A DNA stretch of 64,000 nt from Gautieria morchelliformis (taxonomy: Eukaryota; Basidiomycota; Agaricomycetes; Gomphales; Gomphaceae): assembly GCA_015179125.1 (NCBI GenBank), contig WHVA01000001.1:124001-188000 (forward strand), read 5' to 3'. Shown in pieces: positions 20,370 through 38,890 of the stretch. Every line of letters starts with the position of its first letter. Position 1 is the first letter of the stretch. Under the pieces are notes generated by a model that worked only from the letters and a program-made list of their open reading frames with translations, ran no database searches and was not told where the DNA came from. The position numbers and the translations under genes are program-made.

Positions 20370-22500
20370 TCAGCAGTCCTCCAGCCTCCGCACGAGCTGA
20401 GGGCTGTGTTGACCCCATTCGTGCGACAAACGAGGTTAAACTCAATGCATCCGCTCTTTCGTCCTCCGACACCCTCTCTGTTCCGCTCACTTCCGACACC
20501 ATTTCCGCACCCCCATTTACAGCATTGATCGACTCCGGTTCGACTCATTGTTTCCTCGATTCCGACTTTGTTTTGAAACATAAACTTCCGACCCGCAACA
20601 TTCCGACAATTCTGCTCCGCCTTTTTGACGGGTCATCCAACACGGCAATTTCCCAAGTCGTGGACCTGTCTATCCGTTTTGCTACTGGGGACAACCATGA
20701 AGTTACGTTTTACGTTACTCTGCTAGATGCTAGTTGTTCCGTTGTACTAGGACACAATTGGCTCACCCGATATAATCCGTCAATTAACTGGGCATTGGGT
20801 CAAATACAGTTCCGTACCCCGGATCAACTTCCGTCTATTCCGACGTCATCCGCAAAGATGGTTCAAGCCTCTTCTGCAACTCCGCTCGTGGCTTCAGTTC
20901 TGCACTCCGGTCCTGCTTTAGCACCTCCGCCCCTCGAAGCTCCTCGAATTGTGCTCGCTTCCGCCACCGCTTTCCTTGTATTGCAACGGCAAGAAGACAC
21001 GACTGTTTTCCAGCTTCACCTCTCCGATTCGGCTCCAGTCAAGGCTCGTTCCGCCTCGACTTCCGCTCCGGTCGACATGAGCTCAGTTCCGGAAGAATAT
21101 CATGACTTCCCGGATGTGTTCAATAAGGCCAAAGCCGATAAACCTGCTGAACATCGACCCTATGATTTGAAGATAGATTTGGAAGAAGGAGCATCTCCAC
21201 CCCTTGGACCGATCTACTCCCTTTCGCAAAGTGAACTCCAAACTCTCCGCGAGTTCGTCGATGAACATCTCAGCATGTGCTTTATCCGCCCTTTGCTGTC
21301 TCCGCACGGTGCTCCGGTCCTTTTCGTCAAGAAGAAGGATGGATCTCTCCGCCTCTGCGTCGATTTCCGCGGACTCAATGCCCTCACTAAGAAGGACAAA
21401 TGTCTGCTTCCATGCATTTCCAATCTACTCGACACTCCCCGCAGGGCGAAGATCTACACCAAAATTGACCTCCAGCACACTTATCACCTTGTCCGCATCC
21501 GGGAAGGTGACGAGTGGAAAACCACTTTCCGCAGCCGCTACGGTGCTTTTGAGTGGGTTGTCATGCCTTTCCGTCTAACCAATGCTCCTGCCGCTTTTCA
21601 GCGATTCATGAACGACGTATTTTCCGACCTTCTCAACGTATGCGTCCTAGTCTACATTGACGACATCCTCATCTATTCCAACACACCGGAAAAACATCGG
21701 GAACATGTCCGCAAAGTACTCCGCTGTCTATGCAAACATCATCTCTACGCAAAAGCAGAGAGATGTGAATGGCATCGCGACACGGTCGAATACCTCGGCT
21801 ACATCCTCTCCCCTACGGGTCGTACCATGGCAGAGGACAAGGTCAAGGCAATTCAAGAATGGCCAGAACCCCGACGTGTTAAGGATGTACAGTCTTTCCT
21901 TGGCTTCGCCAACTTTTACCCACGTTTCATTTACAATTTTTCCGACATTGCTGTTCCGCTCACACGTCTCACCAGAAAGGGTGCCCCATGGAATTTCATT
22001 CCGGAATGCTGTTCCGCATTTGAAGCCCTCAAATCGGCCTTCACTACAGCTCCTATTCTTGGTTTCTGGATTCCTGATGCCCAACTTGTACTCGAAACCG
22101 ACGCTTCCGACTACGCGCTAGCCGCAATCCTTTCTATCATTTCCCCCGACGACGGAGAAATTCATCCGATCGCTTTTCATTCCCGCACTGTTTCCGCCCC
22201 GGAACTCAACTATGACATCCACGATAAGGAACTACTTGCGATCTTCGAAGCCTTCAAAATTTGGCGACACTACCTCGAAGGTCCAACCTATCCGATCGAC
22301 GTTGTAACGGATCATAAAAACCTTGAGTATTTTGCGACTACTAAGATTTTGACTCACTGTCAAGTCCACTGGTCTGAATATCTCTCACAGTTCAACATGG
22401 GGATCCGCTTCCACTTCGGAAAGCTCAGAGCCAACCCTGACGTGCTCACTAGACATTGGGACGTCTACCCAAAAGAGGGAAGTAGCGACTATGCCGGCGT
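20370..22500 (+). pseudogene. pol: Gypsy Pol, first part: protease, RT, RNase H
   Basis: Pol lies in the -1 frame relative to gag. In order: the aspartic protease motif IDSGSTHCFLD (20,525), VLGHNWLTRYNPSINW, RT palm motifs (DFRGLNALTKKDK at 21,360; VYIDDILIYS with the YIDD active site at 21,652) and RNase H (LETDASDYALAAIL at 22,092; HDKELLAIFEAF at 22,220). It ends with DYAGV at 22,500, exactly at the TA target of the insertion. Beyond this the reading frame runs into the inserted terminal repeat and stops at 22,618, which is not native sequence. Confidence 0.92.
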
Positions 22501-22502
22501 TA

Positions 22503-22805
22503 CACCTGTTTGCAGTACGCAAGGCGCGCGTCAGGTTTGCCTCCGTTTTAGCGCGCAAGACTCGAACAACGATTTCTCGCTAGTTTCTGCTCGGATTGCC
22601 TTGAGATTTTGTACCTGAACATAAGTTGACCATAGCTAGGGCACAGAAGTATGAAATCCAAGTAAAACAAACTTTTGAGTTTTGGATTTTTGGCCACTAG
22701 GCTGGGTGGTCAAACACCCTTCTGTGAGCATCCAAAGGTTTGCATTACAATGAATAACTACATATTCTTCATGTACCTCTAGATAGAATAATGGATAGTC
22801 ATTGT
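22503..22805 (+). repeat. Left terminal inverted repeat (about 300 bp)
   Basis: Matches the reverse complement of 32,403-32,707 along its length, including CTGGGTGGTCAAACACCC and CTAGATAGAATAATGG at the inner end. In the outer 80 bp about one base in nine differs, mostly C/T or G/A exchanges. The inner end lies just before the transposase gene. Confidence 0.92.
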
Positions 22806-22880
22806 TGTCGATACTTAGCTAAGACTTTGAAGTCGAAGTCTTTGTTTCGGGAACTTCCGGAAACACTGTACGTCATCCGT

Positions 22881-24085
22881 ATGCCTCGCCCTCTCAACCC
22901 TCATCCTGTTCGCCGCCATTACAGCAAGGACTTGCGGGATCGGGTTATACACCAGAAATTCAAGCTTCAAAAGACATCAACTCAGATTGCCATTGATCTT
23001 GACAGGTCATTGCGCGTTGTTCAGCGCACAATCAAGCTCTGGCGCGATATCGGAGATGTTGTAACAGAGCCAAGACGGCTCTCTCGTGGTTCAAAGATGT
23101 CGCCAACTCAGATTGAAGTAAGCTGTTTGTACCTGGGTTTAGCTATCACTTATTTTATAATAGTTTCTTCTCGCGCTTCTTGAACGCTCACCTGACCTTT
23201 ACCTTGATGAACTCGTTGAAGAGCTAGAAGTACAGCATGGCGTTACAGTAAGTATTTCAACTGTATGGAGGACACTCCATAATCTTGGTTTGCAAAGAAA
23301 AAAGGTGAGTTGTTAAATCCTGCAGGAGCACACAATCCTTATTGCTTCCAATCCAGCTTTCCCGGGCAGCAGCAGAGCGCTGTGAAGGTTCACGGACAGC
23401 TTTCCAGTTATACATCGGTGCTGAGCCACCCGAACGCCTAGTTTTTACAGACGAAAGTGCGATAGATCTTCGTACGACTTACAGGCTAATGGGATGGGCT
23501 TCTAAGGGCTGCAGACCTCGTGTTCGGGCACGCTTCCAAAGAGGCGAGAGGTGACGGTCTGTATATAATTCTCTTTTATGTATCACTGACGTTGATTTAG
23601 GTTTTCAATCCTTCCGGCACTATCCCAAGATGGCATTATATATAGTGACATCAAGTTGGGCGCATACGATGGCGACGCGTTTCTTGCGTTTCTTGAAGGT
23701 CTGTTAGAGGTCATGAACCCTTATCCGGCACCTCAAAGTGTTCTCGTCATGGATAATTGCGCCATACATCACGTACCTGAGGTCAAGGTCCTGTGTGCCA
23801 AAAGGTATCTTACCGACTGTCTGTTTGCGCAAGCAGTGTCTAATAATGTTGTATGTTTGCAGAGGAGTCAAACTAGTATATCTTCCGCCATACTCGCCCG
23901 ATCTCAACCCCATAGAAGAATCATTTTCGTTTATCAAAGCTCACCTCAGACGTCACGGTGCTGAGTTCCGCGCCTGCGTTGCAAGTAAAGAGAAGGCCCG
24001 ACCATTCATGTTTCTGTATGAGGCACTGGATCAGATTACGTCGAGACATGCGCAAGGATGGATGAAGGACTCGGGTTATCTGTAG
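22881..24085 (+). CDS. Tc1/mariner transposase, DD34E, intact (332 aa, five exons)
   Basis: Exons at 22,881-23,117, 23,164-23,304, 23,357-23,550, 23,601-23,804 and 23,863-24,085 join without a stop, each intron starting GT and ending AG. The N-terminus is a helix-turn-helix pair ([16 protein letters not shown], then [20 protein letters not shown] and [19 protein letters not shown]). The catalytic triad is D in FTDESAID, D in VMDNCAIHH and E in [11 protein letters not shown], with 34 residues between the second and third. The start at 22,881 ([12 protein letters not shown]) is the family-typical one; an earlier in-frame ATG at 22,791 falls in the terminal repeat. The enzyme would cut at the inverted-repeat ends and insert at TA. 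No inactivating change is visible. Confidence 0.92.
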
Positions 24086-24199
24086 GACTGGAGGATATGC
24101 TACTGTGGGAAGCATGAGTCTGTAACTGCAGTGTACTTGATTTTTGTTGTAGCTCACGTTACCTGAGCAGTATATGACGAGTTTTGGTGTCATTAGTGT

Positions 24200-24779
24200 T
24201 TCACATCCTGTGAGGGATATGATCGTTCATATCCAAACTCCTCGAAACCTTGCATTTGCTATCCAACATAGTACATGGATATTCAAGAAACCTCAAATAA
24301 CAGTATACAGTAAGCCATCAATCAAATTCCTCAAGGGGGACTACAGCGTTGTTAAATGGTTCATAGCACTCTGGAGAGCTACATGTTTTACTGCCTTCTG
24401 AGCTTTCAGCAATGCTATTGAGTCCATCATGTCCTCCTTGTCCCTCAATTCTTCTTTGTTTGGGAAAAGGCGACTGCAATTGGTGAGTGTTAGTGACGTT
24501 CATCTTGCAGAAATGGCATACCTATTCCACCAGTGCAGCAGTTCCTGTACCTCTTCCTCAAAATCCGGGTCTTCTAAAAACTTCACCAGTGCCAGAAAAA
24601 CTGGGTGTTATCGAATGAACGGCTGATCTTTTTATTCGTCTCCTCCGAGGATAACGCGAATCGGGTCTGGGTGAGGTAGAGACCAGATCAACGGTAACCA
24701 GCGATTGTCAGGCCTTTTCTCACCTGTGTTGTGACATACGCCAGAGATCGGCGAGTAACCTGTAGCATGTCAGCCAGTC
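24200..24779. other. Interior sequence without a supportable gene
   Basis: Lies between the transposase and the TOM1-like pieces. On minus it may hold further broken exons of the same ligase gene, but I cannot align any motif. Confidence 0.4.
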
Positions 24780-27515
24780 ATAGACAGACAGGCATCGACT
24801 CGTAGAAGCCAAGGACGTACCCGACTTCCGTGTCCTTCTCGACATTCATGGCTGCCGTCTGGATAGTCTCGATGGTTTCATCTTGCTGCTCAACGAAAGG
24901 AGCTTCAAGCAAAACTGGAAGATATTTTGTCGAGCCGCGGATATGATGGTTCATCTGTAATGGCCTGTTGAGAAATTTCCTCATCTTCCTGTGGAATGGT
25001 AATGGTGTGAGGTTCATCCCCCATGACAAGGAGTGCCTCCGGAACTAAGAGATGAGGTGCTAACCATTTGGGGACGACGGAGGTCTCATTGTCAGCGTTA
25101 AAAGGATGCGCTAGCAGCAGAGCAAGCAAAACGTCCATCAGTTCCTTGGAGGCGTTGGCAGGCAGTCGGGTCTCCAATGATCCAACCTCATTGAGAACTA
25201 GCGCCAGCAAGCGGCAATGAACAGCAAGGGGTTGCTCGTGGATCTCATATGCACCCGGCGAGAAATCTTTGATATCTTGAATAATGAGAGGTAGAGTTCG
25301 TGATGAGTATCCATCTAAAGGCCCAATGAATGCGTTCTTGACGTCGAAAATAAGCGACGGATGTTCGTCTAGAAGACGAAGAGCGCCTCGACCGACATCT
25401 TCCTTGACTGATTCTCATTGCTCGCCAAGTCCTATTCGCCATTGCTCTGAGGTCTTCGCAACGGTTACCTCAGGTGCCGTGTCCTCAGGTTCGACACGAG
25501 TTGATGCCACGTTAGTGTCAACTACTGCAGTCATCTCGGTATCAGTTGGGGTGTCACAGACGCTGACCACAGGCTCTGCTTCGACACCTAAAGGTTCGTT
25601 TGAAGCCGGAGGGTCGAGAGCAACATCTTTGGAGTTGGCGTCATCTGGATCCACGTCAGGTGGGAATGGCAATGGTTGTGCTAGAAGGTACTCGGCGGCA
25701 GCGGTGACATTATTGCGCATTTGAACCAATGCACGTTCCGCGGCAGCGCGTGGAAAGCCCATGTCGCACAACTGTTGTATACCGTTTTCATCCGGCCCAA
25801 CATGGCGGTGAAGGACATTGGAACCCCCCACTGACGTAGGCAAGACATCGGGAGCAGACTCGCCTTTGGGCTCCTCGTTCTCGCCAGCCATGAGCTCTAG
25901 CATGGTCAGGACAACAGATTTGCAGACGCTCAGTGGCGCCTGAACCAACCACGGCGACTCCCATAGTTCGCGCACAAAGGGCAACACAGCCGATCTCAAT
26001 TTGACAAGAAAGTCTTGAGGCTCGAAGTATTCGGGGTCTGTGTCTTTCTTATCCCTGGTCACGAGCAAGAGCGTTTGCAGCGACTCAAATAATGGCTTTG
26101 ATGACACCAGCGAGTGCAACAGATGGAGTGCGACCTTCAGACCGCCAAAGACGTGAACAGGTTGCTGCTTGTCATCTTCGCTGCCGTCAGCAGTCTTGAT
26201 CTGAACAATACGATCCACGGCGGCGGCATATCGGCGACAGAGGCCAACAGTATGTCTAGGCCTCCAACCCTGCGGAAGGCCACGATGAGCATCATGTGGA
26301 TGTTGCTGCGCTCTGCAATTGTCCATTAATAACCCGTGAAATTGTGGCTCTAATTGCACATACCCTCAAACAGTAGGACCGTAATTAGGCCCATCATCAC
26401 TGTCCAATAAGCATAAGATGCCAGTATGTCGTCTTCAGAGCACATCTTAGTTAAGGTCGACTAACATGCAACAACAGCATACCAGATCCTTCCCACTCAA
26501 GATGACATAAGGCGACCTTCGCAACATGGCTTGCGATCGTAATAGCCTGACGCTTCTGTCCAGCGTCCGGGCTCCGCCTATGCAACGAAGGTAACTTCAC
26601 AACGGCTATGACAAATGGGTCATGCACAGAGGATAGGGTTGCTGCCACCGGGCATACCTTGAAAGAAAGGTGTGAGAGAGGTAGGAATCTGGGTCGCAAT
26701 ATGTTTCAACGCCTTTGCAGTGCGTTCCCACGGGCCATCCTTTTTTACACCTTCCTTTGATTTTCCTTCGTCAAGTGATTGCTCCGATTCTGGGAGAGCC
26801 GATCCAACTTCAACCTCGTTTGATAGGTCAGTTGCCTGACCGGCCAACGAGATACCATCTGAGGGGACGCCTGGATTACTACGGCTGACATTGACACCTC
26901 GTGCTGACAAAGCACTTTTCAAGACTATATTTTCCCAAATGCATGCACGGTGAAGAGCACCAATATCCGGAAGGATATCCGAAGCGTCAGTTCCTGTAAG
27001 GCCTGACAGCAACGACAGCGAGGCTCTCCCATGCGTATAAGTCGATGACGAAAATATATCGGCCATGAGAGTGACACGAGTATGAAGGGCGATAAGCTTG
27101 CGGAATTTTAGGTTACCCTCAAGTAGTTGTTCGTCCGCTGAGAATCTACGGTTAAACAAAGAAGGCACAAACGAACTCGAACTCACTCGAGATGTCCACG
27201 TAGCACAACAATTTGGACTTGCTGTCCATGGTGCCCCAGAATTCGCGAGTTTCGTCTAATGAAGCCCGGACTTGGCCCAAGACCTTGCTTATGGTCTGGG
27301 TAGGTGCTACATCTGTCATGGCACGTAAAACCTGAACCAGCGCGTCGGATCCAGGGGAGCTTGCATAATTGTAGGGGATGCACGGAAGTGTCACGATCCT
27401 ACCCAAGCGATCGAGGCCATCTGTTTTGGTGATAAAATCGCGACAGCGTGGAGTATGTTGGAACAGGCCCTCGAGGAACTCATCTAATAGGGATGAGATC
27501 ACAGCGCCCTGCGAA
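24780..27515 (-). pseudogene. Captured fragment of TOM1/HUWE1-type HECT ubiquitin ligase
   Basis: On minus, in protein order: FLEGLFQHTPRCRDFITKTD (27,475 down), KLIALHTRVTLMADIFSSS (27,100), then the DUF913 region and its end (FGGLKVALHLLHSLVSSKP, 26,140), a UBA domain (GIQQLCDMGFPRAAAERALV at 25,780) and the region after it (NEVGSLETRLPAN, LLVPEALLVMGDEP). The catalytic HECT domain and the N-terminus are absent. A frame break is visible near 26,240-26,330, so the piece is a pseudogene. The host protein is a very large ligase acting in protein quality control and mRNA export. It follows the syntaxin piece in the same direction. Confidence 0.82.
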
Positions 27516-27529
27516 GGTCTGCTAAGGAC

Positions 27530-28085
27530 TTACATCACTGAAGAGCTGCGCCAGCTCGCCCAGAGTACGCTCAATTCATTTAATGTCTTCGTGGCGCTCT
27601 TGGACATCACGATAGGCCGCGCGCGACTCACCGTAGCGATCGGAAGATTGAAGCTATTACGCGGGATGAGATAAACGAAGCACAAAAGGAATGAACCTTA
27701 CAGCTTGAGCGAAGATCTGTCCCCCTGGTCGTCGTTGACTACCACCTTGACTTCATTGGGGGTAGCATCAGGCTTGACTAGACAGAAATCAGCTTGAGGG
27801 CATCGACAGGTGACTATTGACTACCAATCTTGAATTGCTGCTCCATGCGTTGTTTGTACTTAGCCCGGTACTGCTGTTCCACCTGTTGATAGTTTTGAAT
27901 GGCCTCGACGAACTTCTGCTTCACCAAGCCCGTCTGCATTGTCCATCTACGGTGAAGCGAATATATTCGGTCTATCACAGGTGGTACGCACCTGTTGCTT
28001 GCGGATCTGTCCATCCCTTCCGCTGCCACCCTTCCTTTGAAGGTTCTTGATGTGAACCTTAAGTTCACTCACCTCTTTGAACCAG
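27530..28085 (-). pseudogene. Captured fragment of plasma-membrane syntaxin (SSO1-like)
   Basis: Minus-strand exons show GGSGRDGQIRKQQ (28,030), QTGLVKQKFVEAIQNYQQVE (27,930), KPDATPNEVKVVVNDDQG (27,770) and SNRYGESRAAYRDVQERH, then ERTLGELAQLFSDV (27,640-27,535). These are the Habc-to-SNARE parts of syntaxin in correct order with introns retained. It is broken by a one-base deletion after NDDQG (near 27,722) and a TGA before IERTL. The C-terminal SNARE end and membrane anchor are missing. The final exon ends in a GTAAGT donor, and the next acceptor leads into the TOM1-like piece, so a chimeric transcript is possible. Confidence 0.88.
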
Positions 28086-28199
28086 AGTCTGATGAGTTCG
28101 AAGGCGTATCAGACAGCGAAGATGACGAGGATACAAGGAAGATGATGAGGATGAGGATGGAGATGGTGGCGAAGGATATAGCTGTGTGAGCTACCACAC

Positions 28200-28640
28200 C
28201 GTGATGGTGCTAACATGATATCGATGAGAGAGCTGGAACGGATACTTCAAGCTTGTAAGTAGGTGAATCCCTTGGACAGTACTTACAGAGTCTCCATGAT
28301 GCTTATTCGATGATTATGATGGTTTGAAACGACTATAACATAATATATGGCAGCCCCAAGCCTGCCTGCACATTATAGGGCTCTGAGCGTGTATCGGCTT
28401 ACAAATTCCACAAGCGCTTATACGGTAGTAGCATCCGGTGCTCATATCCTTCATCACAGAATACCTATGTGCCCGGCGCTCACCTCCAATCACTCCCACT
28501 CCTCCACCCAAAGACGTAGCGCCCTCTGTAAAACACCGTACGTCCAAAGAGTCACTTATATTCTTGGTAGTATCATGCTGACATTCTTTGGTTACTGAAT
28601 AGCTCCCGGAGATCGTAGTCACATACCAGAGTCGTCTAAG
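28200..28640. other. Interior sequence without a supportable gene
   Basis: Only short frames on both strands with no recognised motif, between the divergently oriented syntaxin and SEC31 pieces. Confidence 0.4.
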
Positions 28641-29196
28641 CCCGCGTATAGCGTCCTCTCAGAGGAGCTGAGATGTTTAAGGCAAATTTCCCCCGTACGC
28701 ACGATTATTATGTTAGTTGCCCATTCCTGACCTGTTGATTTAGCCACAGCAAAAGCGTATGGTTGATGACACTGAATGACGACTGGATGCCCTTTTCGAT
28801 GCTCTCAACTGTGAGACGCTCTCAAAACCCGTTGTTGAGCAGTTGGTGAATTTGACAAACGGTACGATATTATCTTGGGGTAACTTTGATGATCTTCAAT
28901 GGAGTTTTCTTTCGCAGCGTAGAAATCGAGATGCGGCCATGGCTTCGAGTCCGTGTATCACTCTGCATTGCCTCCGACCATTTCGCAGACGCGATTTTAC
29001 TTGCAGTCAAAGGAGTCGTGGAGCTCTTGCAAAATACGCAGGCCTATTTCGAACGCCAGACGACTATTCTACCATACCTTCGTCTATATCAGTCGATCGT
29101 GACCAATGACCTCACGGACATCATTCAAAACGCAGACCTGCGCGAATGGCAGGAAATTTTCGTTGGCATTGGTGGCAAAAGCTCAAATTATTTTTA
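28641..29196 (+). pseudogene. Captured, scrambled fragments of SEC31 (COPII outer coat)
   Basis: Plus strand: YSVLSEELRCLRQISP (28,641), an intron ending CCACAG at 28,747, then QQKRMVDDTE-stop-RLDALFDALNCETLS (the C-terminal SRA1-like region). This is followed by SLCIASDHFADAILLAVKG and LRLYQSIVTNDLTDIIQNAD, then LREWQEIFV (28,950-29,160), which belongs to the middle of SEC31. So the C-terminal part precedes the middle part, the reverse of the gene. A CGA-to-TGA stop lies in DTE-stop-RLD near 28,776. SEC31 forms the outer cage of ER-derived vesicles; this piece cannot make it. Confidence 0.82.
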
Positions 29197-29239
29197 AATT
29201 TTATTGTTGGCTTTTACAATATTGTTCTGAGTAGGATTA

Positions 29240-29272
29240 AAAATATTAAAAAAAAAAAATTTTTTTTTAACG
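29240..29272. other. A-tract/T-tract palindrome
   Basis: A run of about twelve A followed by ten T near 29,248-29,269, between the SEC31 piece and the end of the cargo gene. It could be a nucleosome-free or terminator-like spacer. No further support. Confidence 0.4.
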
Positions 29273-29397
29273 TCTCGAGCTCCATATAACGAAGAACATT
29301 ATATTTAGACTGATGTTCGTCAACAACGCATGCGCTAAATCTATAGCAATGACTCGTGTTCTACTGATCCTCATAATGATCCATGACCGTCTCCCAC

Positions 29398-31041
29398 CTA
29401 TTCCCTGACAAGATTCCTAATAGCTTTCCTGACAGCCCGTGTGATAAAGTTAGCGTCACCCCATGACAATCCAATGTTTGCCATGATAGTATCTACCGCT
29501 ATGTCCTTTAGTTCGTTTAGAAAATACACCTGGTTTGTTTCAAATCTTTCTTTGAGGGAATCGATGTTTCGGCCTCTGGCTTCGGGCCAGGTACGAACCT
29601 CCTCAAGAAAGTCATTGATGCTAGGAAAATCAATGTTCCCAGGTGTTGTAGGAATGGGCTCACTCTTTCGAGAGTTGGGTGGAGTGGCGGGATGGACGGG
29701 ATAAATGTTTTGAGCAAGTGCTCGATAGTCGTATTGTGGGAAGAAGCCAGGAAACTGCATGACGGGAAAAGAGCCTTGAACGCCGAGTGGGGCATGACCG
29801 GGTATGTTCTGCATCGGCACCTCTTCAGACTTTTCTTTTGGAACCGCATTTTCTTCTTTACGGTAATGGAAGTCTCGGAAATGTGAATTGTTTGGTGGAG
29901 TTTTCAGAGTGACACCATGCATCTCAGAAACCTATTTGTGCATTATTAGCAGTGAGTAGCATGGATACAGTGTATGTACATACCAAGGCCACCACCCAGG
30001 ATTGCAGTTGGTTCCAGGACAAATGTGCATGCTCTCCATTCTTGGTTAGCTTGCAAACCTTTGCAACGCAAGTGCTCTTGCCGCAGTTAGAATATTCCGC
30101 CTTCAACGCCTCCATGTAATCCTTTTCCCGTTTTGTCAACTGGCCACGCTCTTCGATGTCAGACCCTGAATTGGCATCAGAATCAGCGTTCAAATCGTGG
30201 ATCCGAGCTTCTCTCTTCTTTCTGCCCCTGCCACCATTATTTGCCACCGTTTTTCCTTTTTTGCCAGAAAGTGCGTGCCGAAGTGATGCCATGTACTAAA
30301 ATACTACAATATCAGATACGGCTGCCATGACGATCCATATGCACACTTACATCTTCATCCAGGACGATCTCTACTTCTACCCCACTCGCATCACCCTTTT
30401 TCTTCTTTACCTGAGCGCTCTTCACATCATCCTTGAGAGTGGCCCAGTCATCTTCCTTGGCAAGCTTCGAGAGATGCTTGTCGCGCACTCCTTTGAGGCG
30501 GTAAGCTAGCTGGGGCATTTTTTTCACATTTTTGTAGCACCCAATGGCTTTGAAAACACGCTCCTCCACGTCATTGAAGTGCGCACTAGCTGGGATTTTG
30601 ACACGTTCAATAAATCCTTCCGGTTCGGTACAATCCGGAACACGCAAGACAATGTCTAGATAAAGCATGAGCATATATATAATAAAAATATTAAAATACA
30701 TACTAGGCTCATCCTTTACCTGTTTATGAACGACATCTACTGGCTCCTCAGATTCTGAGCCGTCCGGTAGCTCGTTGGACTCGGCCTCGGATACGGTTTC
30801 CGGTCGAAACTCTTCTTGATCTGAGGCCGGTTCCATCATGTCAGCGAATTGGACCTTTTTTGCTGCCTGACGCTTCGGTCGAGAAGTGCCGGTTTCATCA
30901 GCTGGCAGATCATTTTGTCAGTTTTTGATGAAATTCCATTATTATAACATACTGACCAGGTAATGTTCTTTCCAATGATTCATTGACCATATTATCTCTA
31001 CCAGACTTAGAAGGCTTCCTTTTGTTCTTACCATTCCCCAT
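29398..31041 (-). CDS. Intact cargo gene of unknown function with SAM-like C-terminus (477 aa, five exons)
   Basis: Exons on minus at 31,041-30,957, 30,901-30,704, 30,655-30,351, 30,295-29,984 and 29,931-29,398 join in frame for 477 codons with no stop. The first donor, GTCAGT, is unusual. The start MGNGKNKRKPSKSG is basic. An acidic linker follows (SEAESNELPDGSESEEPVD), then a helical block (NDVEERVFKAIGCYKNVKKM) and a Lys/Arg-rich stretch. A cysteine pair region (SNCGKSTCVAKVC) is next to WNQLQSWVVAL. The C-terminal 75 residues (SINDFLEEVRTWPEARGR to the end) look like a SAM-type helical bundle. I do not recognise a named family, though SAM-like proteins of this build occur in mushrooms. 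It is the only non-transposase gene of the element without breaks, so it may serve the element. Confidence 0.8.
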
Positions 31042-31049
31042 CGTTGCAG

Positions 31050-31539
31050 CGGCTACAGCAAGTCGAATCGGGTCGGATAACGCCGACTCATTTTTACGTG
31101 TGAGTAACGTACTTCACGCTCGCTCGTTCCTTCTACTCTGACATTATATCTTAGCGCACCTGCAGACACAGTGGAGGTAATTTTTCCTTCTTTGAATCTA
31201 CATTCATGATGCTGACTGGATCTGTGCTTTGTTGCATTGTGCTCTCTGGAGTGCTTGTCGCAGGCTTGTTTCTATCTTTTTTTCAAGTAAAATAGCAAGT
31301 CCTGTGCAAAATAATGGAAGGCCCCCTGCGCCAGTCAGAGCGTTTGGGCCAGCTTAGGTCTATTGGCAATTCCCGGCCCAAAGCTAAGGTGCGCATTCTT
31401 TACGATGTGACACGCATTGCCAGCAATCATATTATAATCTTAGATTTCACCTATACCTGTTTGCCCGCATTATGATCACCAAGATCATCATTCACAAGGA
31501 TACAATCATCCTGAAGAATTGTCTAATACATCATACGGT
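31050..31539. other. Upstream region of the cargo gene; no gene seen
   Basis: Holds the presumed promoter of the minus-strand cargo gene. A short plus frame near 31,315 (MEGPLRQSERLGQLRSIG) is not supported by anything else. Confidence 0.4.
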
Positions 31540-32040
31540 CTTCCATGCCGACCCCTTAATTCCCGCGACACCCGCCTGGGCGGTCGTTCCTCTGCGACCG
31601 CACCGGGCGCCGCCGCCTCTTCCTCCTCTCCTGCGCGGGGATGTCCCTCTTCTTCACGGTGCAGACCATGTGCAGCGCGCAGTTCGCGATCACCGGCTCG
31701 ACGGCGGCGCACGCGAGCTCCGCGCTGGGGAGGACGGCATCGACGCAGCAGAGCGCGCGGCGTGTGGCCTGACGCTGACGCGGAGGAGGCGCACGCGGGG
31801 CCGACGGTGAGCGTGCTGAGGCGTGGCGGGAGGCGCGCGGCGAGGGCGGGCCAGTGCGCGGGGGGCACGTTGACAAGGGCGAGGCGCGCGAGGCGGGGCG
31901 CGAGCGCGAGGATGCGGTGCACGGCGGCGAGGCACGCGGGGGGCCACGCGAAGGTGTCGAAGGGCGCGGCGGAGGCGGCGTCGTCCAGGGCGAGGGCGGG
32001 ACAGCCCGGGGCGCCGATGGGCACTCTAACAAAAGGCGAG
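31540..32040 (-). pseudogene. GC-rich host-gene fragment, leucine-rich-repeat/F-box-like
   Basis: The minus strand reads VPIGAPGCPALALDDAASAA, then FAWPPACLAAVHRILALAP and LARLALVNVPPAHWPALAAR, a Leu/Ala/Pro-rich repeat of the kind seen in mushroom F-box proteins. An acceptor-like TTGTTAG precedes it at 32,034. GC content is far above the neighbours. The frame breaks after about 31,800. The assignment rests on composition and leucine spacing only; another GC-rich gene is possible. Confidence 0.4.
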
Positions 32041-32402
32041 TTGCTTCTAAGGCACGCTGTTACGATCGATATACTGCGCGGTCCAGGCCCACTCGGGGAA
32101 TATTTGTGCATTTGATCCACGAGTTTACCCGGGCCGCGAGGATTGAAGACCTCCGAGCGAGCCAGTCGAGCGGTCGTAGTACGAGTACGAGTACTGCCTA
32201 GAGTAAGGAGTATTATATATGTGACATCTGGTAGCGCGGAGCGCATTACTAGTTACTGGTGTAGAGTCACCTTAAACCCGGTATTTATCATGCAGGAGAG
32301 GCACATTCGAGCATGAGGCGGCGGATGTGCGTCTGCTATCCTTGGTAGTAGGTCGAACAGTCTTCTCTTGGGGCTTATGGACGTGGCGGTAGCGGGTCAA
32401 CA

Positions 32403-32707
32403 ACTAGCCATTATTCTATCTAGACTGGTACCTATGAAGAATATGTAGTTATTTATTACAGTGATGCAAACCTTTGGATACTCACAAAAGGGTGTTTGAC
32501 CACCCAGCCTAGTGGCCAAAAATGCAAAAACTCAAAAGTTTGTCTTACTTGGATTTCATACATCTGTGCCCTAGCTATGATCAACATATGTTCATGTACA
32601 AAATCTCAAGGCAATCCGAGCAGAAGCTAGTGAGAAATCCTTGTTCGAGTTTTGCGCGCTAAAATGGAGTCAAATTTGACGCGCGCCTTACGTACTGCAA
32701 ACAGGTG
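32403..32707 (-). repeat. Right terminal inverted repeat (about 300 bp)
   Basis: Reverse-complement partner of 22,503-22,805, ending with CGTACTGCAAACAGGTG and followed by the TA duplicate at 32,708. The region 32,041-32,402 just inside it has no recognised gene. Confidence 0.92.
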
Positions 32708-32709
32708 TA

Positions 32710-34019
32710 ATCCGCACAATTTCCGCCCAGTATTCTCCACTGAGCAACTGGCATTGTCCCTGCGTGCCACAGCATTGCAGTTTCCGCTACTCCACACCTT
32801 GATTATTATGGACACCGAGTCTCTCCATTCCGACATCCATTCCGCACTTCGTTCTGACCCTATCTCCACAGCCCACCTCTATGACCCCACCAGTCCTGGA
32901 TGGTCCCTCGATTCCAACGGATTTCTCCAGTACAAGTCCCGGATTTACGTTCCGGATACCAACGATCTACGACTTTGCGTACTGCAGCAAAGCCGATCAC
33001 CCACTCTCAGGACACCAAGGCCAATACAAGACCCTTGACATAATCTGACGTACCTACACTTGGCCCCTTCTCCGCATGATGGTCCAAGACTATTGCAAGT
33101 CATGCACCACCTGTATGCATGCCAAGCCCCAACGTCACAAACCCTACGGCCTCCTGAAGCAACTTCCAATCATGGAACAACCCTGGAATTCGATATCCAT
33201 GGATTTCATTGAGAAACTTCCTACGTCATCTGGCTATGATACCATTCTAGTGATCGTTGACCGCCTCACAAAGCAGTCCATCTTCATTCTGACCTAGGAC
33301 ACCATCACTTCCGCCCAGCTCACGCAGCTCTTCGTGCTCCACGTATTTTCCAAGCACGGAATGCCTTCCCATGTCACTTCCAACTGTGGATCAGAATTCG
33401 TGTCCTCCTTATTCCGCACACTCGGCAAGGCTCTCGACATGAAGCTCCACTTCACTTCCGGTTATCATCCCGAAGGAGACGGACAAACGGAACGTACTAA
33501 TCAAACCCTTGAGCAGTATCTCCGCGTCTATTGCAACTATCAACACAGCAATTGGTCTGACCTCCTCCCGCTCGCAGAATTTGCTTACAACAATGCACCT
33601 TCCGCCACCACCAGAATTTCACCCTTTTATGCCAACAAGGGCTACCACCCGAATCTCGCCATCCACCCTGAACGCGACCTTGCCTCTGCCAGAGCCCGAG
33701 ATTTCATTGTGCAACTTGACGACCTTCACCAGCACCTCCGAGAGAACATTTCCGCTGCCCAGAAGATATACCAAACTTCCGCCGATCGGAAACACCTTCC
33801 GCAACCGGCATTTGAGATAGGCGACAAAGTCTTTGTCAAAGCGGAAAACTTCCGCACCACTCACCCCTCGAAGAAGCTCTCTGAGAACTACCTTGGTCCT
33901 TACGAGATCATCGCTAAGGCCGGCAGTCATTCTTTCACCCTCAGACTTCCTGACAATATGCGCGCAGTACACCCGGTATTCCATGTCTCCATGCTTGAGC
34001 CCGCAGTTCCGAATACAAT
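32710..34019 (+). pseudogene. pol: Gypsy Pol, second part: integrase (truncated)
   Basis: Continues the pol frame with NPHNFRPVFSTEQLALSLRA, then MDTESLHSDIHSAL. The zinc-binding region CKSCTTCMHAKPQRHKPYG (33,100) and the integrase core follow (SMDFIEKLPTSSGYDTILVI with the first D; TSNCGSEFVS; GYHPEGDGQTERTNQTLEQY with the E). The second catalytic D is N in TSNCGSEF, which would inactivate it. Further damage: a frameshift near 33,000, TGA for CGA at about 33,037 (DII-stop-RTY) and TAG at 33,296. It ends at VFHVSMLEPAVPN where unit R copy C begins. Confidence 0.9.
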
Positions 34020-37625: not shown

Positions 37626-38890
37626 TTGGTGCTTACCAGTGCTCTTGCCAATACAACAACATTCTATCAAAAAAGGTACTTAGATAAAAAACTGCTCCAT
37701 AATTCAGTACTGTCAGGATGGGGCTGGGTGAAGGAACTTCTGGATGGCAATCCACAATGCATGAAGGACCAACTTGGCATGCATAAACACGTATTTCAAG
37801 CGTTGTGCTTGGAGCTTGCTAGCAAAAGTCTACTGGGCCATACCCGCCACATTTGCTTGGAGGAACAAGTTGCTATTTTCTTGTACACAGCCGTAACCAA
37901 CCTGTCTAATAGGAAACTTGCCGAACACTTTCAGCAAAGTGGAGACACCATATCAAAGTTATTGAGTTTACTATTTTTATGTGATTACCTGTTTTGATCA
38001 TGTCCCTAGATGCTTTCACAGAGTACTTGAAGCTCTCACCACGACCCCATTCTATAATACCTATGTCCAACTCCCTGATGAGAACACACCACTTGCTGAA
38101 GAGATTGAGAGCAACCCAAAGCTCTTTCCATACTTTCAGGACACACTAGGTGCAATCAATGGGACACATCTGGATGTTCATCCACCCAGTGAGCACAAGG
38201 CACGTTACTGGAACAGGAGAGGGGGGGTTACACAGAATGTGCTTGTAGCATGTACATTTGACATGCATTTTTACTATGTCCTTGCTGGCTGGGAGGGTAG
38301 TGCATATGATGGTGCAATCTTTGAGGATGCACGGTGCCATGACCTGAAGATACCAGCTGGGAAGTACTACCTTGCTGATGCTGGGTTTGCCTCATGTGAT
38401 GCATTGCTTGTCCCATATTGAGGTGTTCGCTACCATCTCCGGGAGTGGGAGGCTAGTCAGCACAAGTGAGTTGTGGAACCATAGGCTTATTATCTCCAAT
38501 ATTTATCACAGTTTATAGACCTGGAAATCCCAAGGAACTGTTCAATCTGCAACACGCACAGGCACAAAATGTGGTTTAAAGGATTTTTGGGGTATCTTAG
38601 AAACGATTTGCCATGCTACGATTTGCAAATGAGTTCCCAATTGCAGTGCAGGGTTGTATCATCTCTGCTCTTTGCATCTTGCATAACTTTATCCGCACCC
38701 ATGACATTGATGATGATATGGAATGGGATGGCGGGGAAGGTCCTCATGCAGTTCAAAAAGAGCATGTGCAGGAGCAACCTCATGTAGGCATCACATGAGC
38801 AGAATCCACAAGGGCAGCACATAGGCATGATGCTATTGCTGAAGCCATGTGGTTGGACTATGACACAGGGAACCATCGACATGCATAGGG
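37626..38890 (+). pseudogene. PIF/Harbinger (HARBI1-type) transposase
   Basis: Motifs in order: MKDQLGMHKHVFQALCLEL and EEQVAIFLYTAVTNLSNRKL (helical N-terminus), an intron near 37,960-38,010, CFHRVLEAL, then the DDE domain: DTLGAINGTHLDVHPPSE (first D in GAINGTHLD), RGGVTQNVLVACTFDMHF, LAGWEGSAYDGAIFEDA and YYLADAGFASCDALLVPY (second D). After that come RYHLREWEA, FNLQHAQAQNVV and ALCILHNFIR. Stops interrupt it: CGA to TGA after LLVPY (about 38,419) and TAA after QAQNVV (about 38,577). The intact family is about 400-450 aa. Confidence 0.88.

What the first reader, a model, noticed from the sequence alone, without database searches (positions are those of the whole stretch)
22501..32709. A 10.2-kb Tc1/mariner-type element carrying four host-gene pieces and an intact cargo gene
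One TA-flanked unit with about 300-bp inverted repeats contains an intact DD34E transposase, pieces of TOM1, syntaxin, SEC31 and an LRR/F-box-like gene with introns still present, and a complete unrelated five-exon gene. Excision of exactly this segment restores the gypsy pol frame, so it moved as one piece. Gene capture with introns is known for Pack-MULEs and large fungal cargo elements, but I know of no described Tc1/mariner family of this build in mushrooms. The novelty is inference.
Basis: partly seen in the sequence, partly recalled or inferred. Interest (0 to 1): 0.93.

Follow-up and report, generated by a model that had tools for sequence, protein, structure and literature searches.

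The report
Mushroom transposon that collects host genes
In the genome of a truffle-like mushroom, a family of large jumping genes has repeatedly copied pieces of ordinary host genes into itself and spread them, carrying its own cutting enzyme and, in some branches, a second gene of its own; it suggests that a transposon class usually thought of as small and simple can work as a gene-shuffling vehicle.

Summary
Window 22501-32709 is one TA-flanked Tc1/mariner (DD34E) element with ~300-bp inverted repeats, inserted in a gypsy element; 9 of 9 other gypsy copies examined keep the empty site. The genome is Gautieria morchelliformis. It is no single accident: 204 matching ends, at least 25 facing end pairs 3-26 kb apart, and three 10.2-kb copies over 99.6% identical at different places. 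TOM1, syntaxin and SEC31 pieces trace to host genes elsewhere. Copies without TOM1 show that it was copied into an older captured syntaxin piece, with 2-3 nt junction microhomology. Sister branches carry PRP8 and P450 pieces or a FunK1-type kinase gene. The 'intact cargo gene' is not random cargo: it recurs in two subfamilies at dN/dS about 0.2; relatives were found only in Gautieria. Insertions fall at TTAA, duplicating TA. The four largest copies read are enlarged by further inserts. New variant of a known kind: Pack-type, transposase-bearing Tc1/mariner; precedents exist in plants and one ascomycete.

The parts
22501..22502 (.). left TA of the target-site duplication (with T22500 the left part of TTAA)
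22503..22804 (+). left terminal inverted repeat (about 300 bp)
   Evidence: recurs genome-wide
22881..24085 (+). DD34E transposase gene, exons 22881-23117, 23164-23304, 23357-23550, 23601-23804, 23863-24085; 332 aa
24777..24896 (.). captured syntaxin piece, left part (split by the later TOM1 capture)
   Evidence: 96.7% to C281; contiguous with the right part in C164 and C1004
24894..27480 (-). captured TOM1/HUWE1-like E3 ligase piece, 2.6 kb with introns; decayed (one new stop, four frame-shifting deletions)
27479..28066 (.). captured syntaxin piece, right part
28290..28375 (.). short piece matching C371 and C288 (91-93%), identity unknown
28442..28480 (+). 39-bp piece matching the SEC31 donor locus
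28493..28943 (+). captured piece from the downstream part of the SEC31 donor locus
28944..29163 (+). captured SEC31 piece from the upstream part of the donor locus (order swapped relative to the donor)
29398..31041 (-). accessory gene, five exons (31041-30957, 30901-30704, 30655-30351, 30295-29984, 29931-29398), 477 aa, no Pfam match; shared by subfamilies A and B
32403..32707 (-). right terminal inverted repeat
32708..32709 (.). right TA of the target-site duplication (followed by A32710)
20525..22500 (+). left part of the interrupted gypsy-type retrotransposon (observed only)
   Evidence: Pfam RVT_1, RT_RNaseH
32710..33010 (+). right flank in the interrupted gypsy element, used as query for empty sites

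Best explanation
This is one copy of a large, recently spread Tc1/mariner family in Gautieria morchelliformis that captures host gene pieces. Shown: the ends, TA duplication within TTAA, an open DD34E transposase, many copies, donor genes for several captured pieces, layered captures in time order, and a second gene conserved between two subfamilies. Inferred: the element moves by cut and paste, and it grows when a double-strand break inside it is repaired by copying unrelated host DNA with little or no homology at the joints; later transposition then multiplies the composite. The second protein is probably a helper of the element (DNA binding, regulation or protection from silencing), but it is not needed in cis, because sister copies without it have multiplied too.
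For: Ends and copies. Flanks of the 17 copies are unrelated except for one 47-bp match. Empty site 9 of 9. The donor TOM1 gene is still at C286 and matches 97.3% over 2601 columns; C164 and C1004 lack exactly that piece and read syntaxin continuously, like donors C281 and C560. Five junctions have a donor on both sides: shared bases 3 (CGA), 2 (CT), about 2, 0 and 0, and about 5 nt of syntaxin were lost where TOM1 came in. Other branches: PRP8 and P450 pieces joined end to end and a FunK1-type gene at all 40 loci scored of 131 candidates. Selection: transposase A-B dN/dS 0.08-0.095, A-RR 0.10-0.13; accessory A-B 0.18-0.20. The captured TOM1 piece, by contrast, has one new stop and four frame-shifting deletions.
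Against: No transposition or expression was observed. Break-repair copying is read from five junctions only; nested insertion followed by recombination could leave similar joints. Accessory dS between A and B is about 1.2, near saturation, and copies C164, C316 and B156 carry stops (in B458 the one in-frame stop lies beside a misaligned first intron). 9 of 16 other copies lack the accessory gene. Within subfamily A, with few changes, transposase ratios are higher (0.31-0.65), and 3 of 16 other copies have exon indels or an insertion in the transposase. The accessory function has no direct support: no Pfam match, structure model of pLDDT 37.
Confidence: 0.82

Rival explanations
1. A nested accident: an ordinary Tc1/mariner copy into which other DNA was later inserted at this locus only.
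For: The larger copies read are enlarged by nested elements: copia-type in C437, a Helitron in C141, gypsy-type and a DDE_Tnp_4 transposase in C316.
Against: The same junctions recur in copies at different places: C1, C425 and C271 over 99.6% identical with different flanks; syntaxin and SEC31 pieces also in C164.
Confidence: 0.04
2. The pieces entered as neighbouring DNA between two element insertions that was mobilised as one block, not by break repair.
For: Mobilisation of neighbouring insertions is the route described for plant Pack-TYPE elements (PMC8903248, passages seen).
Against: The TOM1 piece sits inside a captured syntaxin piece with no element end beside it and replaces about 5 nt of it; the two SEC31 pieces are in swapped order.
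Confidence: 0.1
3. The five-exon gene is simply one more captured host gene that happened to stay open, a passenger.
For: 9 of 16 other copies examined lack it: C14, C437, C714, C770, C347, C365, C722, B158, B226. No known domain.
Against: Present in two subfamilies whose transposases differ at dS about 1, with dN/dS 0.18-0.20. 25 of 38 loci carrying it have a listed element end within 12 kb, a lower bound because the end lists are incomplete. No homologue outside Gautieria was found.
Confidence: 0.3

Closest known systems
Tc1/mariner DNA transposons (IS630-Tc1-mariner, DD34E)
   Same: DD34E transposase with helix-turn-helix domains, inverted repeats, TA duplication; transposase 57% identical to a protein of Panaeolus cyanescens and similar to others from Agaricomycetes
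   Different: ~300-bp repeats, 4.7-10.2 kb without nested elements, captured host gene pieces, a second conserved gene in two subfamilies, near-exclusive TTAA targets; typical elements of this class are recalled to be 1-3 kb with one gene
Pack-Mariner / Pack-TYPE elements of plants (PMC8903248; start of abstract and passages seen)
   Same: host gene pieces between mariner-type ends with TA duplication, several copies
   Different: the plant ones are called non-autonomous in the abstract, and in one example cluster the captured portion is 280 bp; here 13 of 16 other copies examined carry a transposase without stop or exon indel
Tc1/Mariner with an additional ORF in Pyrenophora tritici-repentis (PMC3538342, passages seen)
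   Same: a fungal Tc1/Mariner carrying a second ORF between its ends, 46 members reported
   Different: there the extra ORF has an osmosensory coiled-coil domain; the passages seen describe no series of several gene pieces traced to donors
Gene-carrying Helitrons of Pleurotus ostreatus (PMC4289320, abstract and passages seen)
   Same: mushroom transposon with captured genes
   Different: Helitron with RepHel helicase, another transposition mechanism
Starship elements (recalled, no paper opened)
   Same: large fungal elements with cargo
   Different: recalled to be moved by a tyrosine recombinase; here a DDE transposase with inverted repeats and TA duplication

Membership tests
Tc1/mariner superfamily | DD34D/E catalytic triad in an IS630-type transposase | tested here: met
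   34 residues between D242 and E277; DDE_3, HTH_32
Tc1/mariner superfamily | terminal inverted repeats | tested here: met
Tc1/mariner superfamily | TA target-site duplication with intact empty site | tested here: met
   17 of 17 copies; 9 of 9 gypsy empty sites
Tc1/mariner superfamily | position in a transposase tree | not tested
   only similarity searches were made
Pack-TYPE elements | host gene pieces inside transposon ends, donor gene identifiable | tested here: met
Pack-TYPE elements | several copies with the captured piece | tested here: met
   TOM1 piece at 6 loci besides the donor, each on a contig with a listed element end; C400 and C667 were not read in full
Pack-TYPE elements | non-autonomous (no transposase) | tested here: not met
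   transposase region present in all 16 other copies examined; 13 without stop or exon indel, C1004 with an insertion, C271 and C714 with small deletions; fourth-intron donor site unresolved by the alignment in B156, B458, B158
Helitron | RepHel protein, no target duplication | tested here: not met
   TA duplication and DDE transposase
Starship | tyrosine-recombinase captain instead of a DDE transposase with inverted repeats | tested here: not met
   no such domain among the ORFs scanned (not every ORF was scanned); definition recalled

The most novel reading that the evidence does not exclude
A lineage of two-gene Tc1/mariner elements in which a dedicated second protein, known only from Gautieria, supports or tolerates capture, so that the elements act as a standing gene-shuffling system with layered, datable captures and strict TTAA targeting.
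Probability: 0.2. Interest if true: 0.82.

Novelty: new variant of a known kind. Interest (0 to 1): 0.66.

Why it matters
Gene capture by DNA transposons is best documented in plants and in Helitrons. Here one genome holds copies from before and after a capture, with the donor genes still in place, so the order, junctions and mechanism of capture by a Tc1/mariner element can be read directly. It also shows that a family of this class can carry a second conserved gene and a kinase gene, and that gene models in such genomes may be transposon-borne pieces of essential genes (TOM1, SEC31, PRP8, syntaxin).

Tried and rejected
Accessory protein structure: AlphaFold2 on six Gautieria homologues gave mean pLDDT 37.4; no fold search was made. 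A first dN/dS attempt was wrong because tblastn alignments ran through introns; one search replaces it, and there accessory C1004 was dropped (region too long, nested insertion). The empty-site alignment failed for two loci on the minus strand (L038, L044); one search repeats it on both strands and gives 9 of 9. Two searches for homologues of the accessory protein gave the same six Gautieria proteins and nothing else (the second scored only the 7993 candidates sharing most words). An ORF of C1004 over the SEC31 piece gave no PDB match and the PDB search with the TOM1 piece gave only UBA-type matches; the donor loci gave SEC31 and DUF908/DUF913. The LRR/F-box-like piece and the stretch 24086-24776 remain unidentified. 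Misassembly was rejected because the same junctions occur on several contigs with different flanks. Literature: no paper held Gautieria, transposable elements and mariner together; by their listings, searches gave the precedents cited and no paper on this family; most subscription papers are not in the library. Passages also seen without bearing on the verdict: PMC2572040, PMC10799480, PMC3864998, PMC10512250.

Full report
Check of the observation. The unit at 22501-32709 has inverted repeats of about 300 bp, 90.9% identical to each other, and TA at both ends. It encodes a 332-aa transposase in five exons with D158, D242 and E277 and 34 residues between the last two, a DDE_3 protein by Pfam. 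It interrupts a gypsy-type element. Of ten loci fetched with the right flank one is the window itself; the other 9 of 9 read through the target with 1 or 2 mismatches in 43 bases, the centre being GCGTTAATC or, in L044, GCGTTAACC. So one TA was duplicated and the segment arrived as one piece.

Organism. The accessory protein's only six matches are Gautieria morchelliformis predictions, one on a contig of 280,134 bases, the length of contig C1004 of this assembly. The genome is 122 Mb in 1113 contigs.

A family, not an accident. The 28-base terminus has 204 matches within 3 mismatches and none in the reversed control. I listed 132 ends by hand: 73, 3, and 56, whose list stops at 100 places and whose subfamily-B entries I took instead (one, on C186, was left out of the pairing). 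Of these, 25 facing pairs lie 3.0 to 26.0 kb apart, median 8.5 kb. Seventeen copies were compared (window, C425, C271, C164, C316, C1004, C14, C437, C714, C770, C347, C365, C722 and B copies C156, C458, C158, C226): all 17 have T before and A after the TA, and their 250-bp flanks are unrelated except for one 47-bp match. In subfamily B, 71 of 73 exact ends have T before TA, whereas 22% of TA dinucleotides in the window are preceded by T and 3.4% lie in TTAA. The target is TTAA, the duplication TA.

Subfamilies and cargo. Subfamily A: C1 (window), C425 and C271 are 10.2 kb; the window is 99.69% and 99.64% identical to the others and they are 99.88% identical to each other. C164 (7.5 kb) and C1004 lack the TOM1 piece; C714 is a 3.0-kb deletion form; C316 is rearranged and enlarged. 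The RR copies (C770, C347, C365 at 4.7 kb, C722 at 5.5 kb, C14 and C437 enlarged; C1083 seen only as a 4.7-kb end pair) match the left end and transposase at about 92% and lack the accessory gene. Subfamily B (C156, C458, C158, C226 and C141 read in full) has the transposase at 78% DNA identity; a FunK1-type kinase gene, whole in C156, C458, C158 and C141 and cut short in C226; and, in C156, C458 and C141, the accessory gene. FunK1 rests on one exon just above Pfam's cut-off (24.8 against 24.1 bits), another below it, and a catalytic motif seen by eye. The four largest copies read hold further inserts: copia-type ORF in C437, Helitron in C141 (splitting its accessory gene), gypsy-type ORF and a DDE_Tnp_4 transposase in C316, unidentified inserts in C1004; the 21-kb pair on C981 was not read.

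Captured host genes and their donors. TOM1: window 24894-27480 matches C286:107462-110062 at 97.3%, colinear through introns; the donor stretch carries DUF908, DUF913 and UBA domains. Syntaxin: 24777-24896 plus 27479-28060/28066 match C281 (two places) and C560, where they are contiguous apart from a few bases; the copy at C281:31 kb reads by eye as a full gene with a membrane anchor, and Pfam Syntaxin passes its cut-off for one of two ORFs. SEC31: 28493-28943 and 28944-29163 match C659 (also C36, C550) in swapped order; the upstream donor ORF is SEC31 by PDB sequence match, the downstream one gave no Pfam match and is assigned by its place in the same locus. In the RR branch, copy C722, a 1.8-kb P450 piece (C431, C782, C720, C572), a 0.8-kb PRP8 piece (C393) and a third piece (C380, C1004:151 kb and others; reads by eye like a P450 start, no Pfam match) follow each other directly. 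In B, the FunK1-type gene is present at all 40 loci scored of 131 candidates; no separate donor showed among these.

Order of capture and junctions. C164 and C1004 read syntaxin straight across the point where the window has TOM1, so TOM1 came second, into the syntaxin piece. At its left border element, donor and target share CGA, at its right CT; about 5 nt of syntaxin were lost. Of the three other junctions with a donor on both sides, P450/PRP8 shares about 2 nt, SEC31/SEC31 and PRP8/third piece none (donors differ by several per cent from the captured copies, so a nucleotide or two is uncertain). This fits break repair that copies DNA from unrelated places; it is inference. The TOM1 piece differs from its donor by 2.7%, the 10.2-kb copies from each other by 0.1-0.4%, so the capture is older than the last spread. 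The TOM1 piece has one new stop and four frame-shifting deletions: as a gene it is dead.

The second gene. It has five exons, 477 aa, no Pfam match. Database models of relatives join the exons at the same points where they align. It is at 38 or more loci (41 matches, 40 of 142 candidates scored; pieces of one locus merged); 25 of the 38 have a listed end within 12 kb, a lower bound. Between A and B dN/dS is 0.18 to 0.20 over 462-463 codons at dS about 1.2; the transposase shows 0.08-0.095 between A and B and 0.10-0.13 between A and RR. Against a vital role in cis: 9 of 16 other copies examined lack it, and C164, C316 and B156 carry stops. I take it as a helper or protective protein of the element with moderate confidence.

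Known and new. Pack-Mariner elements are known in rice and maize (PMC8903248, passages), a Tc1/Mariner with one extra ORF in an ascomycete (PMC3538342, passages), and gene-bearing Helitrons in Pleurotus (PMC4289320, abstract and passages). None of the passages seen describes Tc1/mariner elements that keep an open transposase, hold several donor-traced host gene pieces in layers and share a second conserved gene. Hence a new variant of a known kind.

Noticed in passing
L018:2101-2712 (C1004 copy): A nested insert in the C1004 copy holds an ORF that by eye reads like the start of a DEAH helicase, between two similar stretches; Pfam gave no match.
   Followed up: partly
window 37626-38421: ORFs that by eye resemble a PIF/Harbinger (DDE_Tnp_4) transposase; a DDE_Tnp_4 ORF also lies nested in the C316 copy (L015:8271-9245).
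   Followed up: no
G000:C400:24269-89148: On contig C400 the TOM1 part and the accessory-gene part lie about 50 kb apart in the same orientation, as if one element had been split by a very large insertion.
   Followed up: no
G000:C281:31331 and 139726, C560:638; C659, C36, C550: Syntaxin and SEC31 donors each lie at three genomic places; the C281:31-kb and C560 syntaxin stretches are 99.5% identical over 1.7 kb, the second C281 copy 95%. Segmental duplication or uncollapsed haplotypes are possible.
   Followed up: partly
G000:C267:125606, C927:26129: The two exceptions to the T-before-TA rule among 73 exact subfamily-B ends; both have G and both are right-hand ends.
   Followed up: no
P0005 (JB92DRAFT_3095475): A database gene model joins part of the accessory gene, on a contig of the length of C1004, to unrelated upstream sequence; it may be a prediction artefact or a chimera.
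   Followed up: no
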